Assembly (NCBI RefSeq): GCF_900117445.1
Contig: NZ_FPEJ01000001.1
Coordinates: forward strand, 610,501-674,500
Source of the DNA: Hyphomicrobium sp. NDB2Meth4
GTDB lineage: Bacteria > Pseudomonadota > Alphaproteobacteria > Rhizobiales > Hyphomicrobiaceae
DNA: 64,000 nucleotides
Direction: 5' to 3'
Of the stretch, positions 12,025 through 54,830 are shown piece after piece. The notes beneath the pieces are model-generated. The model made no database searches and had not been told where the DNA came from. It saw nothing but the letters and a program-made list of their open reading frames with translations. Numbering within the stretch: position 1 is the first letter of the stretch; each line of letters begins with the position of its first letter. The position numbers and the translations under genes are program-made.

Positions 12025-12054
12025 GCATACAAAGCCTCTCGAGCCCGTGTCACC
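12025..12054 (+). repeat. Intergenic mosaic element, copy 1 (right end only)
   Basis: Carries the conserved right-end motif in the form CAAAGCCTCTC-GAGC-CCGTGTCACC. Its last base lies 1 base from the stop codon of the minus-strand VOC gene. The GC-hairpin modules seen in other copies are absent or degraded. Confidence 0.7.
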
Positions 12055-12055
12055 T

Positions 12056-12439
12056 TCACTCTGGAAGATGATTCACCGCTTCGATGTTGTGCCCATCGGG
12101 GTCGAGAACGAAGGCGCCGTAGTAGTTCTCGTGATAATGCGGCCGCAGCCCGGGCCCGCCATTGTCGATGCCCCCGGCGGCAATCGCGGCATCATAGAAG
12201 GCGCGCACGTCGGCCCGGCACTTGGCGGCAAACGCTACGTGCAGCCGCCCGACCAGCGGCTTGCCCGTTCCGATCCAGAAGTGCGGCCGCTCGATCCCGA
12301 AGCCGGCGTAGCCGTCCTCGCCATCCTCCGACAGCACAACTTCCATCACGATACGCACGCCCAGCGGCGCCAGCGCTTTCAGGTAGAACGCCTTCGAGCG
12401 GGCAAAGTCGCTAACCGGGAAGCCGATGTGATCGAGCAT
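12056..12439 (-). CDS. VOC family (glyoxalase/dioxygenase superfamily) protein
   Basis: A 127-residue single-domain VOC protein. It starts MLDHIGFPVSDFARSKAFYL, the classic first beta-alpha module, and ends with GAFVLDPDGHNIEAVNH, the second metal-ligand region. His near the N-terminus (LDHIG) and Glu near the C-terminus (NIEAV) fit the metal site of this fold. Start at 12439 has AGGAG upstream. The conserved AFAAKCRADVRAFYDAAIAA segment is common in small alphaproteobacterial lactoylglutathione lyase-like proteins. Reaction unknown. Confidence 0.88.
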   Translation of the reverse strand: MLDHIGFPVSDFARSKAFYLKALAPLGVRIVMEVVLSEDGEDGYAGFGIERPHFWIGTGKPLVGRLHVAFAAKCRADVRAFYDAAIAAGGIDNGGPGLRPHYHENYYGAFVLDPDGHNIEAVNHLPE

Positions 12440-12511
12440 GATTGTCCGCTCCTGAGCCAAGCAGGTGGTCATCTACGCAAGCTTCCATCACCGCGGCAAC
12501 ATCAGAGTGCA

Positions 12512-12656
12512 GCGCAAAGCGTCTCTTAAGCCCGTGTCGCTCTGGAAGCCGCCGCAGGCGGCAGGGGCCCAAAGGGCCCCGCGCCCAAAGGCGCGGATAT
12601 CAACTCGTTCAGCGGCGGGCGCACAGCAAGCTTCCCGCAGCTTGTGCCACCACAAA
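12512..12656 (+). repeat. Intergenic mosaic element, copy 2 (with a second right-end motif)
   Basis: Two right-end motifs are present: GCAAAGCGTCTCTTAAGCCC/GTGTCGC at 12512-12540, and a more diverged CAAGCTTCCCGCAGCTTGTG/CCACC just before the sdhB stop. Between them are hairpins GCCGCC-GCA-GGCGGC, GGGGCCC-AAA-GGGCCCC and GCGCC-CAAA-GGCGC. The composite suggests one copy inserted beside or into another. Confidence 0.75.
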
Positions 12657-12658
12657 AC

Positions 12659-13438
12659 CTAAACTCTGCGCTCGACCATCAGCTTCTTCAGCTCGGCAAT
12701 CGCCTGGGCCGGATTGAGCCCCTTCGGGCAAGCCTTGGTGCAGTTCAGGATCGTATGGCAGCGATACAGCCGGAACGGATCCTCGAGGTTGTCGAGCCGC
12801 TCGCCCGTCGCCTCATCGCGCGAATCTTGCACCCAGCGGAACGCCTGCAGCAGCGCGGCAGGGCCCAAATAGCGGTCGGAATTCCACCAGTAGCTCGGGC
12901 AAGACGTCGAACAGCAGGCGCACAGGATGCACTCGTAGAGGCCATCGAGCTTCTGCCGGTCCTCGTGCGACTGGCGCCATTCCTTCGGCGGAGCCGGCGT
13001 ATCTGTCTTCAGCCACGGCTCGATCAGCCGGTGCTGGGCATAGAAATTGGTGAGATCGGGGATGAGATCCTTCACCACCTGCATGTGCGGTAGCGGATAG
13101 ATCTTCACCGGGCCTTTGATCTCCTCATAGCCCCTGAGGCAGGCGAGCCCGTTCGTCCCGTCGATGTTCATCGAGCACGAACCGCAGATGCCCTCACGGC
13201 AGGACCTGCGGAATGTCAGCGTAGGGTCGATCTCGTTCTTGATCTTGATGAGCGCGTCGAGAACCATCGGCCCACAGCGCTCGGTGTCGATCCAGTAGGT
13301 ATCGATGCGCGGGTTCTCATCCCCTTCTGGGTTCCAGCGATAAACGCGGAACTCCTTCCAGGTCCCCTTGCCCTCCGGCTGGTTCCAGGTCTTTCCACGC
13401 TGAACAGTCGAGTTGCGGGGAAGCGTAAGCTGGACCAT
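12659..13438 (-). CDS. sdhB: Succinate dehydrogenase iron-sulfur subunit
   Basis: Electron-transfer subunit of complex II. The N-terminal ferredoxin-like domain carries the [2Fe-2S] ligands in [15 protein letters not shown]...LAC (about residues 60-80). The C-terminal domain has [16 protein letters not shown] and [17 protein letters not shown] for the [4Fe-4S] and [3Fe-4S] centres. Length 259 aa is normal. It lies about 4.6 kb away from sdhA, with genes on both strands between, which is unusual because sdhCDAB is normally contiguous or nearly so. Confidence 0.97.
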
Positions 13439-13561
13439 TGAAGGGGAGCCTTCCTCTTGCGCCGACGGGTATGCGATGCCCCAAATGAAGCCGCCGCGCA
13501 GCCCCTGTCAACGTCCGCTGACGTCGCGTCGGGGCAAATGAATCCCTACTTTAGTGCTTGG

Positions 13562-14170
13562 CTATTCGGGCCGATGCTTCTTCAGCTCGCGCACCAGTTC
13601 GGTGAGCCGCACGGCAACCTCGGCTCCGGTATCGACCGACACCTTCAGCGTCGCCCGGCTCTGGATCAGCTTGTTGAGCCGCTCCTGCTGCTCACCGAAG
13701 CCGAAGAACAGCTCCTCTGGGGCTTCGATCTCGCCATCTTCGACCGCCGACATCACATCGAACGCATTCTGCGAGGCCAGCACCAGCATCGATGCCACGT
13801 CGTTGATGAGCTGCTGGAACAGCCGCGCGGCATCGACGCCGACCCGCGGCCCGTGCACGCCGAACTTCAGGGGCGAAGAGGCGGGCGCACCCTCGCCCGC
13901 GAACAGCTTCGGATTGCGCTGAAACCGCCGGAAGATCTCCTGCAGTCCAAGACAGCATGTTTCGAGGTCGCGCAGCGCCGTCCCGGCCTTGCGCTTCGAG
14001 CGCGCACGATCGGGCGTCCGCTCCTGCGCCGTCCAGTTGATCGTCGCTATAGAAGCAATCGCACCGAGAGCCGACAACGCCGGCAGCACCGCCGTGAACG
14101 GATCAGGCGCCAGTCGGGTTTCCCCCTCGCTGACCGGCGGCTTTGGGCTTTCCGGTTTCTTATCGGCCAT
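13562..14170 (-). CDS. Hypothetical protein of about 202 residues
   Basis: Not recognised. It starts with a Lys/Pro/Glu-rich segment (MADKKPESPKPPVSEGE), has a short hydrophobic stretch (AVLPALSALGAIASIATI, about residues 25-45), then a mostly helical, charged region ending in RLTELVRELKKHRPE. The single hydrophobic stretch could be a membrane anchor. The start at 14170 is chosen for its composition; an ATG 14 codons upstream is possible and neither has a good ribosome binding site. It lies upstream of sdhB on the same strand. Confidence 0.7.
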   Translation of the reverse strand: MADKKPESPKPPVSEGETRLAPDPFTAVLPALSALGAIASIATINWTAQERTPDRARSKRKAGTALRDLETCCLGLQEIFRRFQRNPKLFAGEGAPASSPLKFGVHGPRVGVDAARLFQQLINDVASMLVLASQNAFDVMSAVEDGEIEAPEELFFGFGEQQERLNKLIQSRATLKVSVDTGAEVAVRLTELVRELKKHRPE

Positions 14171-14304
14171 CGTGTTTGTTGGGCCCGTCGGTTTGAAGAA
14201 GCGGCTCCGCATCAGAAAACTGGCCCTTTTATCCCGATCACGGCCGGCGCACGACTGGTCGACATTGAACCTCTATCATGACGGCACCGAAAAGGACTGC
14301 CCCT

Positions 14305-14715
14305 ATGGCATTTCCTCCAACGCCAGCGCTCACCACCGACTGCGTCGTCTTCGACGGGCGCGGCAGGTTGCTGCTCATTCGCCGCAAGAACCCGCCGTTT
14401 CAAGGGGCCTACGCCCTCCCAGGTGGCTTTGTCGAGATCGGCGAGACCACAGACAACGGCTGCCGCCGCGAGCTAAGCGAGGAAACTGGGCTCAACGTGG
14501 GCGAGCTGACGCTCGTCGGCGTCTATTCCGACCCTGATCGCGATCCGCGCGGCCACACTTGCTCCATTGCCTACCTGGCCAACGTGGCGTCCGCCGAGCC
14601 GGTAGCAGGCGACGATGCCGCTGCCGCCGAGTGGGTCGACAACTGGCGAGAGCAGAAGCTGGCGTTCGACCACGCCAGGATTATCGCCGATGCGGAAAAG
14701 CTGCGCGGCGGCTGA
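14305..14715 (+). CDS. NUDIX hydrolase (ADP-ribose pyrophosphatase-like)
   Basis: A 136-residue protein with a complete NUDIX box: GGFVEIGETTDNGCRRELSE then ETGL, matching G-x5-E-x7-R-E-U-x-E-E-x-G-U. The preceding FQGAYALPGGFVE is typical of ADP-ribose or nucleoside-diphosphate-X hydrolases. The ATG at 14305 has AAAGGA upstream; an ATG at 14278 has no ribosome binding site. It stands alone between minus-strand genes. Substrate not defined by sequence alone. Confidence 0.9.
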   Translation: MAFPPTPALTTDCVVFDGRGRLLLIRRKNPPFQGAYALPGGFVEIGETTDNGCRRELSEETGLNVGELTLVGVYSDPDRDPRGHTCSIAYLANVASAEPVAGDDAAAAEWVDNWREQKLAFDHARIIADAEKLRGG

Positions 14716-14752
14716 CGCTTCCGGATCAGAGCGCGCGAAGGCTCGCGCCCCT

Positions 14753-15073
14753 CTACCGCGCCCCACCGCCGAAATACTCCGGCACGCCGGCATCGAGGCA
14801 CGTCATCTGCACCCGGATGTCCGTGTAAAGGAACCGGCACAGCTCTTTCTTGTGGTTGGGGTTGTTACGGATCGCCGCGAACGTTGTCTTGAACCCGCGC
14901 GCATTAGCGACTTCCGCCAGCAGCTTGTCCTGGCAATACGGCGTCGCCATCCAGTTGCCCTGGATCAGCTGATTGCCGTCATTACACTTGATAGCCGCCG
15001 CGGCAGGCGCCGTAGCTCCAACAGCCAGCAGCGGTAGTCCCGCCGCAATCAGGATAGCTCTGGTCAAGGCCAT
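14753..15073 (-). CDS. Small secreted cysteine-containing protein
   Basis: A 106-residue protein with a clear signal peptide (MALTRAILIAAGLPLLAVGA, cleavage around APAAAA). The mature part has four Cys (KCNDG, YCQDK, LCRFL, TCLDA), probably forming two disulfides. Start at 15073 has GGAGG 8 bases upstream. Family not recognised; it resembles small exported proteins common in Hyphomicrobiales. It lies next to two other small secreted proteins. Confidence 0.8.
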   Translation of the reverse strand: MALTRAILIAAGLPLLAVGATAPAAAAIKCNDGNQLIQGNWMATPYCQDKLLAEVANARGFKTTFAAIRNNPNHKKELCRFLYTDIRVQMTCLDAGVPEYFGGGAR

Positions 15074-15214
15074 TTGGGCGTCCTCCCTCGCTCGCGCAGG
15101 CGCCGGATGAAATCTGCGCCGCTGCGAATCGCAATGTAGAGGCAAACCTAGCGCAGCCAAGTCTGGCCGCGAAGCCGGAGAGGGCGCGGCGCCCTCAAAG
15201 CGCCGCGCGCGAAC

Positions 15215-15685
15215 TCACTGGCCGTCGGGGAAGTATTCGAGCGTGGTCCGGCAGCTCGCCGCCCACTCTTCCTTCGTCATCTGCGTCTGCGGCCCCCAGT
15301 CCTTCATGCACTCTTCCATGCTCTTGTGGGTGACCTTGAAATTGCGCTTCGAGTCCTGGATGACGACGTTGGCCTCGTCGTCGCCGCGCTGGCCGAGCTC
15401 CTCATCCGTGGGAGGCGGTCCCTGCGGTGCGCTCTTCGCCTGGTCGACGGCGGAATCCGGGATGACGCCATCGTCGCCCGACGGCGGAACTGAAGCCTGC
15501 CCGTCGCTCGGGAGCACGTTCTCCTCCTGAGCAATGCCGCTGCGCTCCGCCTGCGTCAGCGGATCGTCGTAGTATGAGTCCTTCGGAACTTCGGCCGCGG
15601 TCTCGGCACTCGCGGCCGCGTTGAACATGGTCAGCGCCGCGACTGCAACGGCAATGGCTGACAGCGAAGACTTCACAGCACGCAT
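15215..15685 (-). CDS. Small secreted protein with a disordered acidic linker
   Basis: A 156-residue protein with a signal peptide (MRAVKSSLSAIAVAVAALTM, cleavage near ASA). It has a long Pro/Gly/Asp/Ser-rich low-complexity middle and a short C-terminal part with two Cys (MEECMKDWG and AASCRTTLEYF). The C-terminal module is similar in style to the small secreted neighbours. Function unknown. Confidence 0.75.
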   Translation of the reverse strand: MRAVKSSLSAIAVAVAALTMFNAAASAETAAEVPKDSYYDDPLTQAERSGIAQEENVLPSDGQASVPPSGDDGVIPDSAVDQAKSAPQGPPPTDEELGQRGDDEANVVIQDSKRNFKVTHKSMEECMKDWGPQTQMTKEEWAASCRTTLEYFPDGQ

Positions 15686-15974
15686 GAAATAGCCCCTCTA
15701 AGAAAACTCGTTCCCGCTTCAAAGAGCGGGATGCGGGCTGAAAGCTACATGATCGCGCTGAGAGTTCAGCAAAGGGCGACCTCGGCGTTTTAGTAAAATT
15801 TTCTGGGTTATCAGCGGGATGCGTTTAACGCCGCCGGCACGTTATCGACCCGATAAGCTATTCTTATGGGCACTTCACGTGATTGCGATTTCTGTTTATC
15901 AGGCTGCGACACTATATTCCTCTTATCGGAACAGGCGAGCAGGCGGCTCGCCGGTCGTTCAACAGGAGGAAATC

Positions 15975-16064
15975 ATGAAGGTTTGGAGCAAGCCGGCCGT
16001 TCGCGAGCAGGAAGTTGGCCTCGAGGTCACGTCCTACATGCCGGCCGAGATCGACATCATCTAA
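15975..16064 (+). CDS. pqqA: PQQ precursor peptide PqqA
   Basis: A 29-residue peptide with the PqqA signature EVTSY, where Glu17 and Tyr21 (spacing E-x3-Y) are the residues cross-linked by PqqE and built into pyrroloquinoline quinone. The tail after Tyr (MPAEIDII) is like methylotroph PqqA tails (AEID). A strong AGGAGG ribosome binding site lies 6 bases before the ATG. The gene is followed at once by a strong terminator and no pqqBCDE genes are in the window, so it is an isolated, separately expressed copy. PQQ serves methanol and other dehydrogenases in the periplasm. Confidence 0.92.
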   Translation: MKVWSKPAVREQEVGLEVTSYMPAEIDII

Positions 16065-16087
16065 CCCTTACCGGGTAAGCTGATACG

Positions 16088-16126
16088 AAAGCGGCGACCG
16101 AGTATCTCGGTCGCCGCTTTTCTTTT
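16088..16126 (+). terminator. Strong terminator after pqqA
   Basis: A perfect 15-bp stem (AAAGCGGCGACCGAG / CTCGGTCGCCGCTTT) with a 3-base loop, followed by TCTTTT. It ends the pqqA transcript about 55 bases after the stop, so pqqA is a one-gene unit. Confidence 0.9.
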
Positions 16127-16140
16127 GCGATGTAGCTTAT

Positions 16141-16707
16141 TTAGAGCGGCTTACATGCCGTGCCCACTGCAATGCACTGCAGTCCGGCCTTCACGTCGTG
16201 GCAGTCGACGTCGGTTTCCTTCGCGTTCTTCCACACGGCGTAGTCCTTGCCATGCTTCTTGCGCACGTCGAGCTCCCAGCCGATCGTGGCCTGCTCCAGC
16301 GCATCCTTCTTGTCTTTCTTAGCCGCGCCGTACGAGCTCAGAGAATCCGACTTGCAGTCGCGCTTCGGGGCCACTGCTTCCTTGGCGCCGCCGATCGTGC
16401 GGTTGAGCAGGTCGAGGCAGGGTTTCGCGGTGCGCACGCAGGTCCACTGACCGCCCTTTTCCTTACAGTCGACCTTGGCGTCCTTGGCATAGCGCCAGGA
16501 GTTATATTCGCCGCCGAACTTCTCTTTCACGGCAGAGCGCCATGCCAGCAGCGAGTTCGGATAAGCTCCGAGATCGCGAAGTGTGGCAGGCTTTCCTTCT
16601 GCAACAACCGTGTCTTTGCAATCCTCAGCGGCCGCCGCAGGCAGGACAGCCACAACACAAAAGGCGGCTGCCATAGCGGCTAGCCGCGCACCAAATTTGA
16701 TTTCCAT
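16141..16707 (-). CDS. Secreted protein with two copies of a Trp/Cys module
   Basis: A 188-residue protein with a signal peptide (cleavage near AAAAEDC). Two halves share a pattern: AWRSAVKEKFGGEYNSWRYA...VDC...WTCVRTAKPC and GWELDVRKKHGKDYAVWKNA...VDC...LQCIAVGTACKPL. Each unit thus has W-x(4-5)-V-x-K-x-G-x2-Y-x2-W followed by three Cys, so the protein arose by an internal duplication. Family not recognised. The gene is convergent with pqqA. Confidence 0.82.
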   Translation of the reverse strand: MEIKFGARLAAMAAAFCVVAVLPAAAAEDCKDTVVAEGKPATLRDLGAYPNSLLAWRSAVKEKFGGEYNSWRYAKDAKVDCKEKGGQWTCVRTAKPCLDLLNRTIGGAKEAVAPKRDCKSDSLSSYGAAKKDKKDALEQATIGWELDVRKKHGKDYAVWKNAKETDVDCHDVKAGLQCIAVGTACKPL

Positions 16708-16848
16708 TGTTCGTTTCCCGATAGGTCAGCGTACGCGCCTCCCCGCGCCGATCTGGCTGGAGGCGTCAGAAACTCGCATAAAATCGTGCGCGATTTTAGG
16801 CTGGCAATGGCCCTGAACGGCGGTGACTTCACCTCCGTTGCCGCCGGG

Positions 16849-17926: not shown

Positions 17927-18031
17927 GGCCGCGAAGCGGCAAGGGCGCAAGGCGCCCCGCGCCTTAGGCGCGGCTATCAGCTCGCGCGACAGCCGCCGCA
18001 CACAAAGCATCTCTCAGCCCGTGTCACGCCA
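17927..18031 (+). repeat. Intergenic mosaic element, copy 3
   Basis: One of the best-preserved copies: GCCGC-GAA-GCGGC hairpin, GGGCGC...GGCGCCC, CGCGCC-TTA-GGCGCG hairpin, then the right end CAAAGCATCTCTCAGCCCGT/GTCACG. The right end is about 4 bases from the sdhA stop. Confidence 0.8.
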
Positions 18032-18034
18032 AAA

Positions 18035-19906
18035 CTAATAAACACGCGCCTTCGGCTCGATGTACTTGACCTCGTTGGTCATCGTGAACGTGTGCACCGG
18101 GCGATAATCCAGCTTCACGTTCTTGGAGCCATAATCGGCCCACGCCAGCGTGTGCTTCATCCAGTTCGCATCGTCGCGATTGGGGAAGTCCTCGCGCGCG
18201 TGCGCACCGCGGCTTTCCTGCCGGTTCAAGGCACCCGTCACCGTCACAGCCGCCTGCGCGATCAGGTTGTCGTATTCCAGCGTCTCGACGAGATCGGAGT
18301 TCCAGATCAGCGAGCGGTCGGTCGTACGGATGTCGTCGGAAGCCCGCCAGATCTCACCGATCTGCTTGACGCCTTCCTCCATCACCGGCCCATCGCGGAA
18401 CACCGCGCAGTGCGACTGCATCGACTTCTGCATGCGAAGCCGCAAATCGGCCGTCGGCGTCGAGCCCTTCGCGTAACGGAAGCGATCGAGCCGAGCCAGC
18501 GCACGATCGGTGATCTCTGGAGCAAGGTCGGGCTGCGCGGCACCGGCCTCCAGCGTCTCTGCACAGCGCAGGCCCGCGGCGCGTCCGAACACAACGAGAT
18601 CGATCAGCGAGTTCGAACCGAGGCGGTTGGCGCCGTGCACCGACACGCACGCAGCTTCGCCGATCGCCATCAGGCCAGGCACCACCGTATCCGGGTTGCC
18701 GTCCTTCAACGTCAGCACTTCGCCGTGGAAGTTCGTCGGGATGCCGCCCATGTTGTAGTGCACCGTCGGCAGCACCGGGATCGGCTCGCGACGGAGGTCG
18801 ACACCCGCGAACACCTTCGCGCTCTCCGTGATTCCGGGAAGCCGCTCCGCCAGGATCTTCGGATCGAGATGGTCGAGGTGCAGGTAGATGTGGTCGCCGT
18901 CCGGACCGACGCCGCGTCCTTCGCGGATCTCGACCGTCATCGAGCGTGAAACGACGTCGCGCGAGGCAAGATCCTTCGCGTGCGGCGCATAGCGCTCCAT
19001 GAAGCGCTCGCCCTCGCTGTTGGTGAGGTACCCGCCTTCTCCGCGCGCACCCTCAGTGATCAGCACGCCCGCGCCATAGATGCCGGTGGGATGGAACTGC
19101 ACGAATTCCATGTCCTGCAGCGGCAGCCCCGCGCGCAGCACCATCGCATTGCCATCGCCGGTGCAGGTATGCGCCGACGTGCACGAGAAGTACGCGCGCC
19201 CATATCCGCCCGTCGCCAGGATCGTCTTCTTCGCGCGGAAGCGATGGATCGTCCCGTCATCGAGGTTCAGCGCCAGGATCCCGCGGCACGCGCCGTCCTG
19301 ATCCATCAGCAGGTCGAGCGCGAAATATTCGACGAAGAATTCCGCTGAGTAGCGCAGCGCCTGGCCATAGAGCGTATGCAGCATCGCGTGACCGGTGCGG
19401 TCGGCCGCGGCACACGTCCGCTGCGCCGGCGGTCCTTCGCCGAACTGCGTCGTCATTCCGCCGAACGGCCGCTGGTAGATCTTGCCTTCCTGCGTGCGGC
19501 TGAACGGAACGCCGTAGTGCTCCATCTCATAAACCGCAGCCGGAGCGTTGCGGCACAGGTACTCGATCGCATCCTGATCGCCGAGCCAGTCCGAGCCCTT
19601 CACGGTATCGTACATGTGCCAACGCCAATCGTCGGGCCCCATGTTGCCCAGCGCTGCCGCCACACCACCCTGCGCCGCCACTGTGTGCGAGCGGGTCGGA
19701 AACACCTTCGTCACGCACGCCGTCTTGAGGCCGGCTTCCGCGCATCCCAACGTCGCGCGCAATCCTGCGCCGCCAGCGCCGACGACAACGACATCGTAGG
19801 TGTGATCATGGATCGGATAGGCATGGCCAGTGACCGCGGGGCCCGCAGCCTTGTCCGGCTTCTTTGCGCCGTTGGCCTTCGCAGAACCGTTCTTCTTCTC
19901 GGCCAT
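18035..19906 (-). CDS. sdhA: Succinate dehydrogenase flavoprotein subunit
   Basis: Catalytic flavoprotein of complex II. The FAD dinucleotide motif [11 protein letters not shown] is at about residues 41-51 and [10 protein letters not shown] gives the His that binds FAD covalently (about residue 74). [11 protein letters not shown] and the C-terminal [18 protein letters not shown] are family hallmarks. The 623-aa protein has an extra Lys/Ala-rich N-terminal extension of about 25 residues ([20 protein letters not shown]). It follows sdhD by 6 bases. sdhB is not adjacent. Confidence 0.97.
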
Positions 19907-20814: not shown

Positions 20815-20975
20815 CCGCCGCCTGCGGCGCTCAGGCGCCAACGGCCCGGCGCAGTCGCTCCGATCGCCCGAGCACCCACCAGCGAGGGCGTGAATCGGCA
20901 GCGCAAAAGTCACGCCGGCTATCAGCTTGCGCTACATCCGCCACAGGCGATGCTTCTCTCCACCCGAGTCACCCC
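20815..20975 (+). repeat. Intergenic mosaic element, copy 4
   Basis: Contains the left module (CGAGC...CCAGCGAGGGCGTGAATC then GGCAGCGCAA), the GGCGCC-AAC-GGC-type hairpin, and the right end ATGCTTCTCTCCACCCGAGT/CACCCC, about 9 bases from the stop of the minus-strand hydratase gene. Confidence 0.8.
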
Positions 20976-20982
20976 GCAAAAA

Positions 20983-27988: not shown

Positions 27989-28017
27989 AGCCTGATCGCT
28001 TCAGACCTTCCAGAACT

Positions 28018-28046
28018 GTCATCCTCGGGCTTGTCCCGAGGATGAC
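28018..28046. repeat. Palindrome GTCATCCTCGGG-N5-CCCGAGGATGAC
   Basis: A perfect 12-bp stem with loop CTTGT, 30 bases after the carbonic anhydrase stop. This sequence is a widely dispersed intergenic palindrome in alphaproteobacteria; two related stems occur at 44325-44347 and 44395-44415. Confidence 0.8.
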
Positions 28047-28084
28047 CGATGCGGGGATGCGAGCTGGGATCACAGCACTCTCCC

Positions 28085-28252
28085 AGCGTGGCGAGCGAAG
28101 CGCGCCATGCTCAGGCGCCAACGGCGCCCGGCGCTGTCGCTCCGATCGCCCGAGCGTCTACCAGCGAGGGCGTGAATCGGCAGCGCAAGAACGGCGCGGA
28201 TTTCGGCTTGCGCGACTTTTGCCATCGAACAAGCTTCTATCCGCTCGTGTCA
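28085..28252 (+). repeat. Intergenic mosaic element, copy 5 (supplies the ccmG stop codon)
   Basis: Holds the GGCGCC-AAC-GGCGCC hairpin, the left module (CGAGCGTCTACCAGCGAGGG, CGTGAATCGGCAGCGCAA), and the right end AAGCTTCTATCCGCTCGTGT/CAC. The TGA that ends ccmG on the minus strand is read from the GTGTCAC of the element, so the element edge lies inside the gene end. Confidence 0.82.
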
Positions 28253-28834
28253 CTGCGCTCTAACAATCGCCGGCATCAGCTTCTCCTCGATGCTCTGCAC
28301 CGAGACCGGCCCCACGTGCTTGAACACGATCTCACCCTTGCCGTTGAGGACGAACGTCTCGGGCATGCCATAGACGCCCCACTCGATCGCGCCGCGCCCC
28401 TTGGGATCGGTACCCACCGCCGCGAAAGGATTGCCGTAGCGGCCGAGGAATCGCCGCGCCGCCACTGGGTCGTCCTTGTAGTTCACCCCGTACAGCGCAA
28501 CGCCCGAGCGCTTCTGCAATTGCACCAGCAGCGGCTGCTCCTCCGCACAGGGGGCGCACCATGAAGCCCAGAAGTTGACGATCACCGGCTTGCCGGTCGC
28601 CAGTTCGCCGCTCGTGAACCCCGGCACCGGCTTTTCATCAGCCAGCAGGCCCTCCAGCGGCGCGAACTCCGTCACGGGTGCCGGTTTGCCCAGCAGCGCC
28701 GACGGCAGCTTCGAGGGATCTCCGCCCTGCAGCGCGAAGGCGAACAGCGCCACCAGTCCGGCAAACACCAGAACCGGCGTTAACACCCAGCCGATACCGC
28801 GTTTACGCGTGCTTGGCGCAGGCTCGTTGGTCAT
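28250..28834 (-). CDS. ccmG: Thiol:disulfide interchange protein CcmG/DsbE
   Basis: Periplasmic, membrane-anchored thioredoxin-like protein that reduces apocytochrome c haem-binding cysteines. An N-terminal anchor (VLTPVLVFAGLVALFAFAL, about residues 17-35) precedes the thioredoxin domain with active site WCAPC (Cys93, Cys96) and the cis-Pro region GVYGMPETFVLNGKGEIV. Length is 194 aa. It is the last gene of the ccmABCDG operon, starting 20 bases after ccmD. Confidence 0.95.
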   Translation of the reverse strand: MTNEPAPSTRKRGIGWVLTPVLVFAGLVALFAFALQGGDPSKLPSALLGKPAPVTEFAPLEGLLADEKPVPGFTSGELATGKPVIVNFWASWCAPCAEEQPLLVQLQKRSGVALYGVNYKDDPVAARRFLGRYGNPFAAVGTDPKGRGAIEWGVYGMPETFVLNGKGEIVFKHVGPVSVQSIEEKLMPAIVRAQ

Positions 28835-34258: not shown

Positions 34259-34290
34259 AGGAGGGCGGCACGCCCTCCTTCTCTCCCCCC
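34259..34290 (+). terminator. Probable acnA terminator
   Basis: A perfect 9-bp stem AGGAGGGCG / CGCCCTCCT with a 3-base loop, 20 bases after the acnA stop, followed by a pyrimidine-rich TTCTCTCC tract rather than a pure T-run. Confidence 0.6.
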
Positions 34291-34317
34291 TTGGCCCGGG
34301 GGGAGGGCTGGGGTGGG

Positions 34318-34492
34318 GGTGGCCCGAGCACCTGCCAGCGAGGGCATGAATCCGCAGCGCCAAGCCCAACCAAGCCGCGAACCCTGTTGGTCGCAGAGCG
34401 ACAAGGCGCCAAGGGCGCCCGCGCCCGGTGGCGCGGATCTCAACGTGTTCGACAGCCGCTGTCGAACAAGCTTCTCTCCAATGGTGTCGCCC
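34318..34492 (+). repeat. Intergenic mosaic element, copy 6 (between two plus-strand genes)
   Basis: Left module CGAGCACCTGCCAGCGAGGG and CATGAATCCGCAGCGC, then GGCGCC-AAG-GGCGCC hairpin, GTTCGACAGC/GCTGTCGAAC inverted repeat, and right end AAGCTTCTCTCCAATGGTGT/CGCCC. It is the only copy with no minus-strand gene end at its right border. The rest of the 34239-34587 gap holds the acnA hairpin and nothing else recognised. Confidence 0.8.
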
Positions 34493-34587
34493 AGTAAAAC
34501 CCCGAACACAGCTTTGTGAGTTCTGTTGTATCGTTACGCCCTGCGCCTAGTCTTATGGAGCAAGCCCTTTCGGTGTATTTTGCCCCC

Positions 34588-38477: not shown

Positions 38478-38645
38478 TCCCTGTCATCCTCGGCTGCCGT
38501 GGATCCATGGCTCCACGAACTTCGACGCTGAAGCGGCTCGGTCGCCGTCAGGCGGCAAGGCGCCAAGGGCGCCCGGCGCTGGCGCCGGCTGTCAGCTTGC
38601 ACCCGGCCAACCGCATGCAAAGCTTCCAGCCGCCTCGTGTCACCC
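38478..38645 (+). repeat. Intergenic mosaic element, copy 8
   Basis: Begins with a half GTCATCCTCGGC palindrome, continues with GGCGCC-AAG-GGCGCC and GGCGCTGGCGCC stems, and ends with CATGCAAAGCTTCCAGCCGC/CTCGTGTCACCC. It fills the space between the convergent DUF2794 and BI-1 genes; here a true terminator separates it from the BI-1 stop. Confidence 0.8.
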
Positions 38646-38647
38646 AA

Positions 38648-44294: not shown

Positions 44295-44324
44295 CCCGAC
44301 GCAGCGGGCGATGCATCCGCTGTC

Positions 44325-44415
44325 ATCCTCGGCTTCATGCCGAGGATCCACCGCGCCACCAGCTCCGACGTTCACTTCAAGAGAATAGCTGGGTCCTCGG
44401 GACAAGCCCGAGGAT
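44325..44415. repeat. Pair of GATCCTCGG-type palindromes
   Basis: Two stems, ATCCTCGGC-TTCAT-GCCGAGGAT (44325-44347) and TCCTCGGG-ACAAG-CCCGAGGA (44395-44415), flank 47 bases. Together they form the composite intergenic repeat common in Hyphomicrobiales, related to the palindrome at 28018. Confidence 0.8.
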
Positions 44416-44437
44416 GACGTCGTACGAGCGACTGGCC

Positions 44438-44470
44438 GCGGCACAACAAGCTTTGCGCCGCTCGTGTCAC
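44438..44470 (+). repeat. Intergenic mosaic element, copy 9 (short)
   Basis: Only the right part is preserved: CACAACAAGCTTTGCGCCGC/TCGTGTCAC, ending 1 base before the secB stop. The GC-hairpin modules are replaced by the palindrome pair just upstream. Confidence 0.75.
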
Positions 44471-44471
44471 A

Positions 44472-44984
44472 TTAATTCTTCAATTCGTTCTCTGCCCGCG
44501 CGCGCATCTCTTGCTGGCGGCTCATGTAGAGCGAAGCGAAGTCGAACGGATCGAGCAGCAGCGGCGGGAAGCCGCCTTCGCGCGTCAGGTCCGCTGCGAT
44601 CCGGCGCACGAACGGGAACAGGATCGTCGGGCAGTTGACCAGGAGGAACGGCTCCAGCGCCTGCTCGGGGATGTTCTCGATCCGGAACAGGCCTGCATAG
44701 ACCAGCTCCAGCTGATAGATCTCGCCGTTCTTGTTGACCGCCTGCGCGTTGAAATCGATCGTGCTCTCGTACAGCGACGGGCCCATGCCCTTGGCGCCCA
44801 CATTGATCGACAGCTGCAGGTTCGGCTGATCGCCCGGATCCTTGATGATCTTCTCGATGTTCGGGTTCTCGAACGAGAGATCTTTGATGTACTGCGCGAC
44901 GACCTTCACCTGAACCGGCGGCGGGGCAGACTTAGCGGCCTCGTCTGGTTTGCCATTGCCGTTGCCATTGTTGGAGCTGGCCAT
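44472..44984 (-). CDS. secB: Protein-export chaperone SecB
   Basis: A 170-residue export chaperone that keeps preproteins unfolded and hands them to SecA. The core VKVVAQYIKDLSFENPNIEK and CPTILFPFVRRIAADLTREG are diagnostic; GGFPPLLLDPFDFASLY follows. A Gly/Asn-rich N-terminal stretch (SSNNGNGNGKPDEAAK) is typical of alphaproteobacterial SecB. It lies near the dnaQ-coaE-aroE-maf group, as in other alphaproteobacteria, but with extra genes between. Confidence 0.96.
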   Translation of the reverse strand: MASSNNGNGNGKPDEAAKSAPPPVQVKVVAQYIKDLSFENPNIEKIIKDPGDQPNLQLSINVGAKGMGPSLYESTIDFNAQAVNKNGEIYQLELVYAGLFRIENIPEQALEPFLLVNCPTILFPFVRRIAADLTREGGFPPLLLDPFDFASLYMSRQQEMRARAENELKN

Positions 44985-49778: not shown

Positions 49779-49884
49779 TTGGCTCTCGTGCCCGGCGGCC
49801 GCTTGCGGCGCGCTCCAGGGCGTGGTGGAAGGGCGTAGTCGATGGCGTTCTGGGCGAAATTACCCTGTTGGCGGGAGGTTTTAC

Positions 49885-50859
49885 ATGAAAGCAGCACTTT
49901 GCAAGAGCCTCGAGGGTCCCAGCGCGCTCGTCATCGACGACTTGGCTGTTTCGCAGCCAGGCCCCGGCGAGATTCTGATCGACGTTAAGGCTGCCGCACT
50001 CAACTATTTCGACACCCTCATCACGCGCGGAAAGTACCAGTCAAAGCCCGACCTGCCCTTCTCCCCCTCTGCCGAGATTGCCGGGACCGTTGCGGCGCTG
50101 GGCCCGGGTGTCACTGGCCTGACGGTTGGCGAGCGCGTCGCCGCCTACATCGGCTGGGGCGGCGCCCGCGAGAAAGTCATCGCCAAGGCCGAAGCCGTCA
50201 TCCCCATTCCTGACGGCGTCAGCGACGTCGTCGCCGCCGGCGTCTCGGTCACCTACGGCACGGCCATTCACGGCCTCAAGGATCGCGCCCGCTTGCAGCC
50301 GGGCGAGAGTATCGCCGTGCTGGGTGCCGCCGGCGGCGCCGGCCTTGCGGCGGTTGAGATCGCCAAGCTGATGGGCGCACGCGTCATCGCCGTTGCGTCC
50401 TCTCCCGAGAAGCTCGCCGTCACCAAAGCTCACGGCGCCGACGACGCGATCGATTACAGCGGCACCGACCTCAAGGATGCATTGCGCGCCCTCACCGATG
50501 GCAAGGGCGTCGACGTCGTCTACGATTGCGTTGGCGGCGCCTCATCGGAGCAAGCTTTGCGAGCAACCGCATGGCAAGGCCGCTTCCTCGTCGTCGGTTT
50601 CGCATCCGGCGACATTCCCAAGATCCCGCTCAATCTGTTGCTGCTGAAGGGCTGCGATGCGTTGGGCGTTTTCTGGGGCGAAGCAGTAAAGCGCGATCCA
50701 GCCGGCCACCGCGCCAACATGGTGCAGGTGCTCGATTGGGTCGCGAAAGGCCAGCTCAATCCGCGCATCCACGGCACCTTTGCGTTGGATGACATTCGCG
50801 ATGCGCTCGCCGTCATCGAGAAGCGGCAAGCCGTCGGCAAAGTCGTCCTGACGATTTAG
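49885..50859 (+). CDS. NADPH:quinone oxidoreductase family protein
   Basis: A 324-residue zinc-free medium-chain reductase. NADPH motif AVLGAAGGAGLAAVEIAKLM lies around residues 143-162. LNYFDTLITRGKYQSKPDLP and PFSPSAEIAGTVAALGPGVT are the QOR-type N-terminal segments, and YDCVGGASSEQALRATAWQG is the usual dimer-side segment. GGGAGG precedes the ATG. Physiological substrate unknown. Confidence 0.92.
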   Translation: MKAALCKSLEGPSALVIDDLAVSQPGPGEILIDVKAAALNYFDTLITRGKYQSKPDLPFSPSAEIAGTVAALGPGVTGLTVGERVAAYIGWGGAREKVIAKAEAVIPIPDGVSDVVAAGVSVTYGTAIHGLKDRARLQPGESIAVLGAAGGAGLAAVEIAKLMGARVIAVASSPEKLAVTKAHGADDAIDYSGTDLKDALRALTDGKGVDVVYDCVGGASSEQALRATAWQGRFLVVGFASGDIPKIPLNLLLLKGCDALGVFWGEAVKRDPAGHRANMVQVLDWVAKGQLNPRIHGTFALDDIRDALAVIEKRQAVGKVVLTI

Positions 50860-50949
50860 CCGCGCAAAGACACGCGCATTCAGACTTTATTTGCCATGTT
50901 GGGCCGATGCTACGTCCGTTGAGTTTAGTTGCGGAGCGTCAGCGTCGAG

Positions 50950-51618
50950 ATGCGTCAGTCGCGTGCCATGATGATTGCCCTCGGCGCGCTGGCCGCATCT
51001 GCTGCCGCGTACGAGCCGGCTTTCGCCGAGGGCTTCTTCTCCCGTCTGTTCGGTTGGGGCAATTCCCGCCCAGCCGAGCGCATGCCAGCGCCGACGTATA
51101 ACTTCGGCTACGGCGGACAGCGCTTCGACTACGGCTACGGCTATTCCGAGGATGGCTGGCCGCGCGACAACACGCGCTACCGGTCGCTGTGCGTGCGCAC
51201 ATGCGATGGCTTCTATTTCCCCATCGGCGACAATGTCGGCCGCGAGCGGCTCTACCAGGATGCGCGCACCTGCCAGGCGCGCTGCGATGGCGAAGCGCAG
51301 CTCTACTATTACCCGACCAACGGCGGCACCATCGAAACCATGGTCGACATGGCTGGCCGCCCCTACGCGCAGACGCCGACAGCATTCCTCTATCGTAAGA
51401 AACTGGTGGAGGGCTGCACCTGCAAACCCGCGCCTTGGTCTGCGGAAACGGCTGCCCGTCATCAGGGCTACAAGGATGATGATCGCGCGCTTGCCGAGAT
51501 GCGCAACTCTGAGCAGCGCTACGCCGGCCAGCCCGCCAGCGACATCGGCGGTTATCTGATGCGCGAGAACGACGGCCCGCAGCAGACTCCCTGGGACGGC
51601 GGCCTCCGCCGCTATTAG
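50950..51618 (+). CDS. Secreted DUF2865 family protein
   Basis: A 222-residue exported protein with a signal peptide (MMIALGALAASAAAYEPAFA). The DUF2865 core is YRSLCVRTCDGFYFPIGDNV, then CQARCDGEAQLYYYPTNGGT and TAFLYRKKLVEGCTC, with six conserved Cys. A Gly/Tyr-rich stretch precedes it. Family is typical of Hyphomicrobiales; function unknown. Start among clustered Met codons (50950, 50968) is uncertain. Confidence 0.88.
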   Translation: MRQSRAMMIALGALAASAAAYEPAFAEGFFSRLFGWGNSRPAERMPAPTYNFGYGGQRFDYGYGYSEDGWPRDNTRYRSLCVRTCDGFYFPIGDNVGRERLYQDARTCQARCDGEAQLYYYPTNGGTIETMVDMAGRPYAQTPTAFLYRKKLVEGCTCKPAPWSAETAARHQGYKDDDRALAEMRNSEQRYAGQPASDIGGYLMRENDGPQQTPWDGGLRRY

Positions 51619-51714
51619 AAGCCCCTCACCCTACCGATGCACGCCCAACGTCACCCCGACGGAGGTCGGGGTCCACGCTAGCGCCGGCTTGCTCTTCTGG
51701 TGAGCATGCATTCC

Positions 51715-51873
51715 TCTTGGCCGCGCAACGGCAAGGGCCCAAAGGGCCCCGCGCCCCGCCTCCGATCGTCCGAGCGTCTATCTGCGAGGACGTGAATCGG
51801 CGGCGCAAAAAAGCGCGGCTATCCACTCGCGCTGCGCTCACCGCAAAGCGAGCTTCTCGACGCCTGTGTCAGT
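51715..51873 (+). repeat. Intergenic mosaic element, copy 10
   Basis: Contains GGGCCC-AAA-GGGCCC, the left module (CGAGCGTCTATCTGCGAGGA, CGTGAATCGGCGGCGCAA), then AAGCGCGGCTATCCACTCGC and the right end AAGCGAGCTTCTCGACGCCT/GTGTCAG. It fills the convergent DUF2865/dnaQ gap. Confidence 0.8.
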
Positions 51874-51890
51874 CTAGAAAGAACAGAACT

Positions 51891-52607
51891 TCAACCAGCG
51901 TCGGCGACCATAAATTTCTTCCAGATCGCGTTCTCGCCCAGCGAGGCAACGAACTCTGCGTGCGCCTTTTCAAGGTCCACCGAGAGGCGAGGCAGCAGCG
52001 GGCTCGGCCGCTGTTGCGCGTTGCCACGCTGCAAGGTCGTGATCTCGCCACCCTGCGCATTCGACGATCCCATCGATAGCTCGACGAACGCCGCCTGCCG
52101 TGCGCCCAGCAGCTCGATATAGACTTCGGCCAGCAGCAGCGAGTCGACGAGCGCGCCGTGCTTGGTGCGCTTGGTATTGTCGATGCCGTAGCGTTTGCAC
52201 AAGGCATCGAGATTGTTCGGACCCGCGGGATGGCGCCGCTTTGCAAGCTGCAGCGTGCACGTGACGCGATCCATCGCGATCTGCCCGAGCGACAAGCGCC
52301 CCAGCTCGAAATTCAAAAAGCCGATGTCGAACGCCGCATTGTGGATGACGAGCCCATCCTCGGCGATGAACTCCAGGAACGAGTGCGCCACCTGCGCAAA
52401 CTTCGGCTTGTCACGCAGGAACTCCGTCGAGATCCCGTGCACGTTCTCGGCCTCTTTCGGCACGTCGCGCTCGGGATTGATGAAGCAGTGATACTCGCGG
52501 CCCGAAGGAATCCGGTTGATCAGCTCGATGCAGCCGATCTCGATCAGACGGTCTCCCTTGAGCGGGTCGAGACCAGTCGTTTCCGTATCGAGGATGATTT
52601 CGCGCAT
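51891..52607 (-). CDS. dnaQ: DNA polymerase III epsilon subunit (proofreading exonuclease)
   Basis: A 238-residue 3'-5' exonuclease of the replicative polymerase. ExoI is DTETTGLD (Asp7, Glu9), ExoII is HNAAFDIGFLN and ExoIII is HGALVDSLLLAEVY with the catalytic His and Asp. RLIEIGCIELINRIPSG and HVHGIS-like NVHGISTEFLRDKP are typical. It is the last gene of the maf-aroE-coaE-dnaQ group, 32 bases after coaE. Confidence 0.96.
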   Translation of the reverse strand: MREIILDTETTGLDPLKGDRLIEIGCIELINRIPSGREYHCFINPERDVPKEAENVHGISTEFLRDKPKFAQVAHSFLEFIAEDGLVIHNAAFDIGFLNFELGRLSLGQIAMDRVTCTLQLAKRRHPAGPNNLDALCKRYGIDNTKRTKHGALVDSLLLAEVYIELLGARQAAFVELSMGSSNAQGGEITTLQRGNAQQRPSPLLPRLSVDLEKAHAEFVASLGENAIWKKFMVADAG

Positions 52608-52639
52608 TCTATTTTGACGCCGCGATTCGGCTCGTCCGG

Positions 52640-53257
52640 TCAAGCCCACTCGCGGGCATAAGCCTCACCCGACCACGTTTCCAGCTCGGCGAGGATCTTG
52701 TCGAGGTGCGCCTCGCTTGCCGCCGTCCCGCTGCCCGTGTCGACGACGAAATCGGCCCGCGCGCGCTTCTCGGCATCCGGCATCTGCCGCGCCAGCAGCC
52801 CGTCCAGCTTCTCTTTCGTCATGCCGACGCGATTGAGCAACCGCTCGCGCTGGATCTCGGCCGGGGCGGAAAGCACGATCACCACGTCGACCAGCTTGTT
52901 CGCGTTGGTTTCAAAGAGCAGCGGAATCTCGAGGACAGCGATCTGCGTGCCCCGCCGCGCCTCGGCGCGCAGGAACGATCGCTCCGACTCCCGCACCATC
53001 GGGTGCACGATTGCTTCCAGCTCGCGCAGACGTTCCGGATGCGAGATGATCGCCGTACTCAACCGTGTGCGATCGACACCCGCCTGCGTTGTCGTTCCCG
53101 GAAAGGCCCGCTCGATCCGTTCCACCGCTTTTCCACTGGCATAGAGGCGGTGCACCTCCGCGTCGGCATCGAACACGGGCACGCCCCGCAAGCGCAGGAA
53201 AGCTGCGGCTGTGGACTTCCCCATGCCAATCGAGCCAGTGAGCCCCACGATCAGCAT
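52640..53257 (-). CDS. coaE: Dephospho-CoA kinase
   Basis: Last step of CoA synthesis, phosphorylating the 3'-OH of dephospho-CoA. P-loop GSIGMGKST is at about residues 8-16 and FDADAEVHRLYASGKAVERI carries the conserved Asp. HPMVRE and LEIPLLFETN are family segments. Its start overlaps the aroE stop by 7 bases. Length is 205 aa, normal. Confidence 0.96.
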   Translation of the reverse strand: MLIVGLTGSIGMGKSTAAAFLRLRGVPVFDADAEVHRLYASGKAVERIERAFPGTTTQAGVDRTRLSTAIISHPERLRELEAIVHPMVRESERSFLRAEARRGTQIAVLEIPLLFETNANKLVDVVIVLSAPAEIQRERLLNRVGMTKEKLDGLLARQMPDAEKRARADFVVDTGSGTAASEAHLDKILAELETWSGEAYAREWA

Positions 53258-54087
53258 TTTTTCCCCTCGACGTCGGCGATGAGAATTGCGCGCAGTTCGT
53301 CAGTCACCTGTGGGCGCACGCCGAACCATTTCTCGAACCCAGGCACAGCCTGATAGAGCAGCATCCCCAACCCATCCACGGTGCGCAAGCCCTCCTTCCG
53401 CGCTTCGGCGAGCAGCTCGGTTTCGAGCGGCACATAGACGATGTCGGCGACGACGCAATCCGGATTGAAGCCGGCAAAGTCCATTCCCAGCGTACCCGCG
53501 CCCTTGAGACCTGCCGCAGTCGTGTTGACCAGCACGCAAGCCTCGCGCGATGCCTCGCTGCGCGCGTCCCAGTCGAACACCTTCACCCGCGGACCGAACG
53601 TTTCGGCGAGCACCTCCGCCCGCTGCCGCGTCCTGTTGAAAATGCGCACCTCGTCCACGCCGGCTTCGAGCACCCCGTGCACGATGGCCCGCGCCGCGCC
53701 GCCCGCGCCCAGCACACAAGCCGGCCCATCATGCGCTTTCCAGGCCGGAGCCGCATGGTCGAGGTTTGTCATGAAGCCGTATGTGTCGGTGTTGGCAGCG
53801 TGCAGCTTTCCACCTTCCAGCCACAAGGTATTCGCCGCTTGCACCGCGCGCGCCGAGGCCTCGCGCTCGTCGGCTATCGCGTAGGCCAGCTCCTTGTGCG
53901 GCACCGTCACGTTGCAGCCAACGAAGCCGCGCCTGTCCAGCGAGCGCAAAAAGTCTGCGACCTCGTCCGGCCGCACCGCCTCTTTGATATAGCTGCCATC
54001 GATGCCGTACTTCATCAGCCAATAGCCGTGAATGATCGGCGAGCGCGAATGCTCGATAGGCCAACCGATGACGCAGGCACGTTTCAT
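53251..54087 (-). CDS. aroE: Shikimate dehydrogenase (NADP)
   Basis: Reduces 3-dehydroshikimate in aromatic amino acid synthesis. Shikimate-binding HSRSPIIH lies at about residues 13-20, the catalytic Lys is Lys65 in GCNVTVPHKE and the NADP motif is LGAGGAARAI near residue 126-135. YQAVPGFEKWFGVRP ends the protein in the standard way. Its start overlaps the maf stop by 4 bases. Confidence 0.96.
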   Translation of the reverse strand: MKRACVIGWPIEHSRSPIIHGYWLMKYGIDGSYIKEAVRPDEVADFLRSLDRRGFVGCNVTVPHKELAYAIADEREASARAVQAANTLWLEGGKLHAANTDTYGFMTNLDHAAPAWKAHDGPACVLGAGGAARAIVHGVLEAGVDEVRIFNRTRQRAEVLAETFGPRVKVFDWDARSEASREACVLVNTTAAGLKGAGTLGMDFAGFNPDCVVADIVYVPLETELLAEARKEGLRTVDGLGMLLYQAVPGFEKWFGVRPQVTDELRAILIADVEGKKC

Positions 54088-54698
54088 GTCGACAAGATCC
54101 CGCGCCAGCGCAGTTCGGTCATCACCGGAAGCAGCGGCATGCCGAGAATCGTGAAATAGTCGCCCTCGATCACTTCAAAGAGCTGGATGCCCAGCCCTTC
54201 CAGTTCATAGGCGCCCACCGTCTGCGTCACGCGGTCGGCCGCACGGTTCAGGTAGTCATCGAGGAAACCGTCTGAGAAATCCCGCATCGTCAGCTTCGCT
54301 GTGCCAACGTGCGTGAAGCTCACATTGCCGTCCTCGGCGAACACCACCGCGGAGTGCAACTCGTGCGTCCGCCCGCGCAACCGCTGCAACGCCTCGCGCG
54401 CAGCTTCGATATTCGGTGCCTTGCTCAGCAATTCACCGTCGAGCGCCAGCACCTGATCGGCACCGATGACGACGCACCCGGCGCGCTTGCCGCTCACGTC
54501 CTCCGCCTTCGCAATCGCCAGCTTCTCCGCGATCTTTTCCGGCGCGATATGCTTGTCCTCTGCGAATAGCTGCGCGCGAATTGCCGGCTCGTCGACATCC
54601 GCGGCCTGCACTGTGAACGGCACGCCCGCTGCGGCCAGCATTTCCCGCCGCGCCCGGCTTCCTGACGCCAGAACAATCTCCCGCACACCCGAGCTCAT
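54084..54698 (-). CDS. maf: Maf-like nucleoside triphosphate pyrophosphatase
   Basis: A 204-residue Maf/YhdE-YceF family pyrophosphatase that removes modified NTPs. ASGSRARREMLAAAGVPFTV and VIGADQVLALDG are the signature segments, and TVGAYELEGLGIQLFEVIEG is typical of the C-terminal half. The ATG at 54698 is chosen for its GGAAGG ribosome binding site; an ATG seven codons upstream is possible. First gene of the overlapping maf-aroE-coaE-dnaQ run. Confidence 0.95.
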   Translation of the reverse strand: MSSGVREIVLASGSRARREMLAAAGVPFTVQAADVDEPAIRAQLFAEDKHIAPEKIAEKLAIAKAEDVSGKRAGCVVIGADQVLALDGELLSKAPNIEAAREALQRLRGRTHELHSAVVFAEDGNVSFTHVGTAKLTMRDFSDGFLDDYLNRAADRVTQTVGAYELEGLGIQLFEVIEGDYFTILGMPLLPVMTELRWRGILST

Positions 54699-54726
54699 GT
54701 TGCCTTCCACGCTTGTCACGCCTCTT

Positions 54727-54830
54727 CGCCGCGAAGCGGCAAGGGCCCAACGGGCCCCGCGCCCTTGGCGCGGCCATCCACCCGTTCAACATCGCCGCAC
54801 AAATGCCTCTCTCCACTTGCGTCACCGCAA
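54727..54830 (+). repeat. Intergenic mosaic element, copy 11
   Basis: Well-preserved hairpin series GCCGC-GAA-GCGGC, GGGCCC-AAC-GGGCCC and GCGCC-CTT-GGCGC, then the right end AAATGCCTCTCTCCACTTGC/GTCACC, about 15 bases from the ppsR stop. It separates ppsR from maf on the minus strand. Confidence 0.8.

What the first reader, a model, noticed from the sequence alone, without database searches (positions are those of the whole stretch)
12025..54830. Family of at least eleven co-oriented intergenic mosaic elements
Eleven gaps share a right-end motif (AAGCTTCTCTC, 0-6 base spacer, CTCGTGTCACC with variations): 12025, 12512, 17927, 20815, 28085, 34318, 35366, 38478, 44438, 51715, 54727. All read the same way on the plus strand. 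Most also contain GC-rich hairpins of the type GGGCCC-AAA-GGGCCC and GCGCC-AAGG-CGCG. The shared sequence is too long and ordered for chance and lies only between genes. I recognise no named family; it may be a new REP/MITE-like repeat or a conserved 3'-end RNA element.
Basis: seen in the sequence. Interest (0 to 1): 0.85.

Follow-up and report, generated by a model that had tools for sequence, protein, structure and literature searches.

The report
One-strand repeat behind gene ends
Hyphomicrobium and a related genus carry dozens of copies of an undescribed, roughly 105-base folded DNA repeat placed just behind the ends of genes, and in the genomes with many copies nearly all of them lie on the same strand of the chromosome, which suggests that they were inserted in step with DNA copying.

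Summary
The unit (~105 nt) has a 5' box and GC-rich hairpins with strong compensatory changes.

Model R2 finds at least 61 copies in the own genome, 80 in a sister species and 0-10 in six other genus members, and 51 in a complete 3.65-Mb chromosome of a sister genus. Copies start about 0-20 nt behind stop codons or, in the sister genus, mostly behind intrinsic terminators and tRNA genes. None of 137 lies inside a called gene.

The new point is polarity: 61 of 62 own-genome copies follow their contig's strand, 71 of 71 in the sister species (one weaker later match does not), and 45 of 51 share one strand of the complete chromosome. In the two copy-rich Hyphomicrobium genomes that strand is the G-rich one.

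Best explanation: a non-autonomous mobile repeat aimed at 3' ends of transcription units and inserted through single-stranded DNA at replication forks. The mobilising enzyme was not found. Family firm; mechanism inferred.

The parts
11959..12057 (-). element copy, divergent 3' half, behind glyoxalase-family gene 12056-12439
   Evidence: R1 62.6 bits; gene, Pfam
12551..12654 (-). element copy, full length, behind sdhB-like gene (2Fe-2S/4Fe-4S, 12659-13438)
   Evidence: R1 89.4 bits; Pfam
12474..12544 (-). second, partial tandem copy directly behind the previous one
   Evidence: R1 25.2 bits, E 0.03; sequence
17928..18031 (-). element copy, best-scoring in the genome with R1, behind flavoprotein subunit gene (18035-19906)
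   Evidence: R1 102.7 bits; Pfam
20887..20976 (-). element copy with module B in the H2 loop, behind MaoC-type dehydratase gene
   Evidence: R1 67.6 bits; family D2
28099..28257 (-). element copy with module B; the TGA of its 5' box is the stop codon of the redoxin-family gene 28250-28786 in my gene call
   Evidence: R1 67.4 bits, R2 43.1 bits (C13:638599-638754)
34390..34494 (-). element copy between two plus-strand genes; not found in L032 at this site
   Evidence: R1 88 bits
35392..35473 (-). element copy behind peptidase M3 gene; site shared with G004
   Evidence: R1 55.6 bits
38544..38647 (-). element copy directly behind the T-tract of an intrinsic terminator that is also present in L033-L035, which lack the element
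   Evidence: R1 78 bits; alignment
44394..44474 (-). 5' box only, behind secB
   Evidence: R1 31.8 bits, E 0.0013; Pfam
51714..51876 (-). element copy with module B, behind exonuclease (RNase_T) gene
   Evidence: R1 69.7 bits, R2 75.5 bits (C13:662214-662373); Pfam
54728..54829 (-). element copy, full length, behind kinase/pyrophosphorylase gene
   Evidence: R1 85.3 bits; Pfam
28112..28191 (-). module B, a second repeat nested in H2; further copies at 20830-20909 and 51732-51811, a weaker match at 34286-34365
   Evidence: family D2; 21 copies in all fetched stretches

Best explanation
A new family of non-autonomous mobile repeats of about 105 bp, restricted so far to Hyphomicrobium and one sister genus. 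It is aimed at the 3' ends of transcription units: T-rich DNA just behind stop codons, intrinsic terminators or tRNA genes. It carries its own GC-rich hairpins, in the sister genus often ending in a terminator-like hairpin and T-run, so a new copy does little harm and offers a site for the next copy (tandem arrays). Copies probably enter as or into single-stranded DNA exposed on the lagging-strand template, which fixes their strand relative to fork movement. SHOWN: family, structure with covariation, placement, tandem arrays, strand rule, restricted host range. INFERRED: mobility, single-strand route, link to replication. UNKNOWN: the enzyme; copies may now be old and largely inactive.
For: Dispersed copies with the same structure: 61 and 80 in two Hyphomicrobium genomes, 51 in G320 of another genus. 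Patchy numbers within one genus: G006 10, G001 6, G003 5, G002 3, G005 and G007 0. Copies absent at syntenic sites of relatives near the PPDK gene: no R1 match in L033-L035 at E<=1. At least 16 of 52 own-genome sites shared with G004 (two of its 18 rows dropped because they arise inside one array), so the others are gains or losses since the split. Placement: nearest upstream gene on the same strand and -2..21 nt away in 39 of 58 copies (G000), -12..16 nt in 37 of 65 (G004), -2..17 nt in 14 of 14 (other Hyphomicrobium); many of the remainder are later copies of tandem arrays. In G320 12 of 19 first copies follow a terminator-like hairpin and T-run, 0.6 expected from shuffles, and two follow a tRNA gene by 7 nt. 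Copies in G320, G373 and G334 lie behind the same tRNA-Val type. One strand: 61 of 62 copies follow their contig's majority strand in G000, 71 of 71 in G004, 15 of 15 G004 contigs with two or more sites have a single strand, 45 of 51 copies (33 of 37 sites) on + in G320. That strand is the G-rich one after correction for gene direction in 28 of 28 G004 contigs and in all 22 tested bins of G000. Known single-strand transposition into the lagging-strand template (IS608, ISDra2) is described in PMC6006769 (passages); group IIC introns target DNA stem-loops and use lagging strands at forks (PMC10190682, passages).
Against: No Y1 transposase in 8 of 8 genus genomes and no RVT_1 reverse transcriptase in 7 of 8, the exception being G006; other transposase families were not searched. 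No clean insertion junction or target duplication was found; alignments with empty sites are noisy. Median identity among own-genome copies is only 64%, so most copies are old. The strand rule does not follow ordinary bidirectional replication: it does not change across hemE-parS in G000 and in G320 it also holds where skew is near zero (11 + sites, 0 - sites). In G006 copies occur on both strands behind convergent genes. Exceptions: G000 C4:599034 (+, in a region of negative D) and G004 C16:50985 (-, on a + contig). Strong covariation fits an RNA or DNA function as well as mobility.
Confidence: 0.45

Rival explanations
1. A structured 3'-UTR RNA element: copies are kept because the folded RNA ends, stabilises or processes the mRNA of the gene in front of it.
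For: Position right behind stop codons; compensatory changes in H2-H3 (169 double-change cells against 70.7 +- 5.4 in shuffles and 14-73 when slid); commonest context is between convergent genes (32 of 58 in G000, 36 of 65 in G004); terminator-like T-run in 11 of 22 G320 copies at 6 or more T in 8.
Against: T-run after H4 in only 9 of 58 G000 and 6 of 65 G004 copies. Predicted RNA folds are not clearly more stable than shuffles (z -0.44 to -1.98 for the six folds). Does not explain why plus-strand gene ends carry none in the window (10 of 26 minus-gene ends against 1 of 13 plus-gene ends, and that one lies in the convergent gap of a minus gene; p=0.063) or why copies also follow tRNA genes and existing terminators.
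Confidence: 0.25
2. A polar chromosome element: copies are kept in one direction because a protein reads them during replication, repair or segregation (as with KOPS, Chi or Ter sites, recalled comparisons).
For: Near-absolute strand rule in copy-rich genomes; agreement with the G-rich strand; 10 of 39 C13 sites in one 43-kb stretch beside hemE and parS (1.3 expected, post hoc P 1e-6).
Against: Other members of the genus have 0-10 copies, so no essential role. In G320 sites are spread over most of the chromosome. Position behind stop codons is not needed for such a role. Long structured units differ from the short oligomers known for such roles.
Confidence: 0.12
3. Relic of amplification by recombination and slippage, without any insertion enzyme.
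For: Tandem arrays with a period of about 113 bp and identical-scoring neighbours in G320 need only slippage.
Against: Does not give dozens of dispersed sites, nor tight placement behind gene ends.
Confidence: 0.08

Closest known systems
REP sequences / REPINs with TnpA-REP (RAYT)
   Same: Dispersed, extragenic, hairpin-forming, single-strand transposition proposed (PMC6006769, PMC3116915; passages).
   Different: Unit about 105 nt with several hairpins against about 20-65 nt; head-to-tail instead of inverted pairs; no Y1 transposase in 8 of 8 genomes; one strand genome-wide.
Group IIC introns (insertion behind DNA stem-loops)
   Same: Insertion behind hairpins or terminators (in G320), use of lagging strands at forks (PMC10190682, passages).
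   Different: No reverse transcriptase in G000 or G004, no Rfam match to a catalytic intron, far too short.
Rhizobial intergenic mosaic elements (RIME, recalled name; listing only)
   Same: Alphaproteobacterial intergenic repeats of about 100 bp with palindromes, as far as recalled.
   Different: Sequences were not compared; strand behaviour unknown to me.
Integron attC arrays (CALIN)
   Same: Folded sites directly behind stop codons in one direction (recalled).
   Different: Genes in front are core genes in conserved order, spread over the whole chromosome; integrase not searched.

Membership tests
REP/REPIN (RAYT-mobilised) | cognate Y1/TnpA-REP gene in the genome | tested here: not met
   PF01797: 0 of 8 genus genomes, control rings in 5 of 14
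REP/REPIN (RAYT-mobilised) | pairs of units in inverted orientation | tested here: not met
   arrays are head to tail; convergent pairs only in G006 (two contigs) and at a few G320 places
REP/REPIN (RAYT-mobilised) | GT[AG]G foot at a single hairpin of 21-65 nt | tested here: inconclusive
   consensus GGTGACACGAG... and several hairpins; no systematic foot test done
Group IIC intron | intron-encoded reverse transcriptase, at least in trans | tested here: not met
   PF00078: none in G000, G001-G005, G007; one in G006
Group IIC intron | insertion directly behind a stem-loop/terminator | tested here: inconclusive
   12 of 19 in G320, but 12 of 51 in G000, 9 of 47 in G004, 1 of 14 elsewhere (shuffles 0.6, 2.0, 1.4, 0.6)
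Intrinsic terminator | GC hairpin followed by a T-run | tested here: inconclusive
   11 of 22 G320 copies, 9 of 58 G000 and 6 of 65 G004 copies with 6 or more T in 8
Any Rfam family | match at the gathering score | tested here: not met
   none in the window; five loci at E<=5 give no match at or above a gathering score
Integron attC array | R'/R'' core sites and an integrase | not tested
   neither was searched
RIME elements | sequence homology | not testable with these tools
   no reference sequence held

The most novel reading that the evidence does not exclude
In these bacteria the main chromosome is copied largely in one direction, and the repeats either record this (insertion only into the lagging-strand template) or enforce it as polar fork barriers. 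In G000 the gene-direction-corrected GC3 strand asymmetry D keeps one sign through 1.27 Mb of contig C13, across hemE, parS and dnaA, without a flip (D -0.14 to -0.22 in 8 of 8 bins). G003, a relative with 5 copies, shows D near zero with mixed signs. In G320 the copies keep one strand through an arc with D>0 (20 + and 2 - sites) and an arc with D near 0 (11 and 0), and both strands occur only where D is negative or nearby.
Probability: 0.12. Interest if true: 0.92.

Novelty: new variant of a known kind. Interest (0 to 1): 0.62.

Why it matters
If the strand rule is caused by insertion at forks, every copy is a fossil record of fork direction, and 60-80 copies per genome would let fork direction be read from sequence in bacteria never cultivated. 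If it is instead caused by the copies, they would be an undescribed polar chromosome element. Either way the uniform skew across the usual alphaproteobacterial origin region is directly testable by coverage profiling of a growing culture. PMC7858055 (passages) reports unidirectional replication shown by experiment for chromids, not for a main chromosome.

Tried and rejected
Motif-only counting was rejected as evidence because it is at chance level. A dif-like pattern recalled from other bacteria found nothing, so the terminus was not located. A plain leading-strand reading was my first view and was weakened: skew does not flip at hemE-parS and G320 copies keep one strand in both halves. Synteny with G003 was tried to order the contigs of G000: C13 is largely colinear with G003 C1/C2, but C4 and C8 are rearranged, so a genome-wide strand statement for G000 rests on contigs, not on an ordered chromosome. 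G-U against A-C counts to tell RNA from DNA were not decisive. Plasmid and phage collections gave no match to one copy. Three further order-wide matches (G040, G361, G161; 28.8-32.9 bits) look doubtful by eye and are not counted as members. Literature: no paper on such a repeat was found in nine searches, which cover only the open library.
Full report
Check of the observation. The two 11-base motifs with up to two mismatches occur no more often than in shuffles. The longer element is nevertheless real. Twelve minus-strand copies were aligned (A1) and a model R1 built. It finds 66 places in the own genome G000 at E<=1 (150 of 4977 candidates were scored). A better model R2 from 67 copies finds 61 at E<=0.01. 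The window is G000:C13:610501-674500.

Anatomy, read on the sense strand: a T-rich stretch; a 5' box GGTGACACGAGC-GGAGAGAAGCTT; a variable stretch; hairpin H2 (CCGGCGC..GCGCCGG or CCGCGCC..GGCGCGG); H3 (GGCGC/GCGCC, GCGCC/GGCGC or GGCCC/GGGCC round CTT); H4 (GCCGC..GCGGC). With the structure I named, 91.6% of cells pair, and 169 cells show changes on both sides against 70.7 +- 5.4 in shuffles and 14-73 when the partner is slid; H2 and H3 carry most of this. The structure was drawn from these sequences, which favours it over the slid versions. H0 and H1 in the 5' part are weakly supported. Predicted folding energies are not clearly unusual (z -0.44 to -1.98). Some copies carry a second repeat, module B, inside H2; 21 copies of it were found in the fetched stretches, 19 near an element, and all 21 have the strand of the elements on that contig.

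Distribution. Genus: G000 61, G004 80, G006 10, G001 6, G003 5, G002 3, G005 0, G007 0. With R1, 6 of 40 relatives including the own genome had matches at E<=0.001, all in this genus. Order-wide with stricter filters, 9 of 397 genomes matched; convincing are three Hyphomicrobium and three of one sister genus, g36 (G320, G373, G334), the other three are weak. G320, a single contig of 3,653,837 bases, has 51 matches at E<=0.01. No match of one copy in plasmids or phages. G004 appears to be the MAG BWSM_147 and the relatives named Hyphomicrobium fit the genus; this naming rests on equal contig coordinates or lengths.

Placement. With my own simple gene caller, 0 of 137 copies lie inside a gene. 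The nearest upstream gene is on the same strand within -2..21 nt in 39 of 58 copies of G000, within -12..16 nt in 37 of 65 of G004, and within -2..17 nt in 14 of 14 of other Hyphomicrobium. Nine G000 and six G004 copies have an opposite-strand upstream gene. The spacer is T-rich. In G320 the setting differs: 12 of 19 first copies follow a hairpin and T-run, against 0.6 in shuffles, and copies at 2100581 and 3613209 follow tRNA-Val and tRNA-Ala by 7 nt; G373 and G334 also have a copy behind tRNA-Val. In the window, 38544-38647 sits directly behind a terminator that relatives without the copy also have. T-runs after H4 are common in G320 (11 of 22) and rare in G000 and G004 (9 of 58 and 6 of 65). 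Tandem arrays have a period of about 113 bp.

Strand rule. In the fetched stretches G000 has 62 copies at 52 sites: C13 48 -, C15 5 -, C8 4 -, C12 2 +, C4 2 - and 1 +. G004 has 71 copies at 49 sites on 28 contigs, each with one strand; 15 of 15 contigs with two or more sites are uniform. R2 adds one weaker opposite match, G004 C16:50985 (its listing was cut, so further weak ones may exist). G320: 45 + and 6 -; by site 33 and 4. G006 has both strands, G003 too.

Link with base skew. I measured D, the GC3 skew of the top strand averaged over genes of both directions. G000: 8 of 8 bins of C13 -0.139 to -0.220, 3 of 3 of C8, 3 of 3 of C15, 7 of 7 of C4 (-0.032 to -0.156) negative with 90% bootstrap ranges below zero, and C12 +0.122. 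So all but one G000 copy lie on the G-rich strand. G004: sign agrees in 28 of 28 contigs, using an assumed coding offset of 0.13. G003: bins from -0.057 to +0.068. G320: D 0.10-0.17 from 0.40 to 2.215 Mb, -0.086 at 2.30-2.46 Mb, near zero elsewhere; sites 20 + and 2 -, 2 and 2, 11 and 0.

A puzzle. The window ends in the gene order PPPase, hemE, rho, mnmE, which in other Alphaproteobacteria is recalled as the origin region; three parS-like sites lie at C13:674445-674690 and dnaA at C13:973715. D does not change sign at any of these. C13 is colinear with independently assembled G003 across 446-762 kb apart from a small local inversion, so a misjoin there is unlikely. Either the origin is elsewhere in this lineage or replication is unusually one-sided. 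This is the basis of the novel case and is not shown.

Mechanism. Dispersed, patchy copies, tight placement at 3' ends, arrays and the strand rule together fit a non-autonomous mobile repeat entering single-stranded DNA at forks. IS608 and ISDra2 are precedents for the lagging-strand template (PMC6006769, passages). Against: no Y1 transposase, no reverse transcriptase in the copy-rich Hyphomicrobium genomes, old copies (median identity 64%), noisy junctions. Own sites shared with G004: at least 16 of 52, after dropping two of 18 rows that arise within one array; one search missed the shared site at window 38544, seen.

Noticed in passing
window 55663-56136 and C13:674445-674690 (from window 63945): Classical alphaproteobacterial origin neighbourhood (PPPase-hemE-rho-mnmE, three parS-like sites) with no change of GC skew sign on either side.
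   Followed up: partly
window 20830-20909, 28112-28191, 51732-51811; 34286-34365 weaker: Module B, a second palindromic repeat of about 60 nt, mostly nested in hairpin H2 of the element; 21 copies, all with the element's strand.
   Followed up: partly
window 44320-44440, 28000-28050, 38500: A third short palindromic repeat around CCTCGGG..CCCGAGG; 13 matches in G000 stretches on both strands.
   Followed up: no
window 11959-54829: Copies are crowded here: 10 of 39 C13 sites in 43 kb beside hemE, 1.3 expected (post hoc).
   Followed up: partly
G000:C4:599034 and G004:C55:96525: The one opposite-strand copy of G000 lies at a site shared with G004, so it is old.
   Followed up: no
G006:C24:78626-79231: The one reverse-transcriptase match in the genus lies on a contig that also carries a convergent pair of copies, about 60 kb away.
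   Followed up: no
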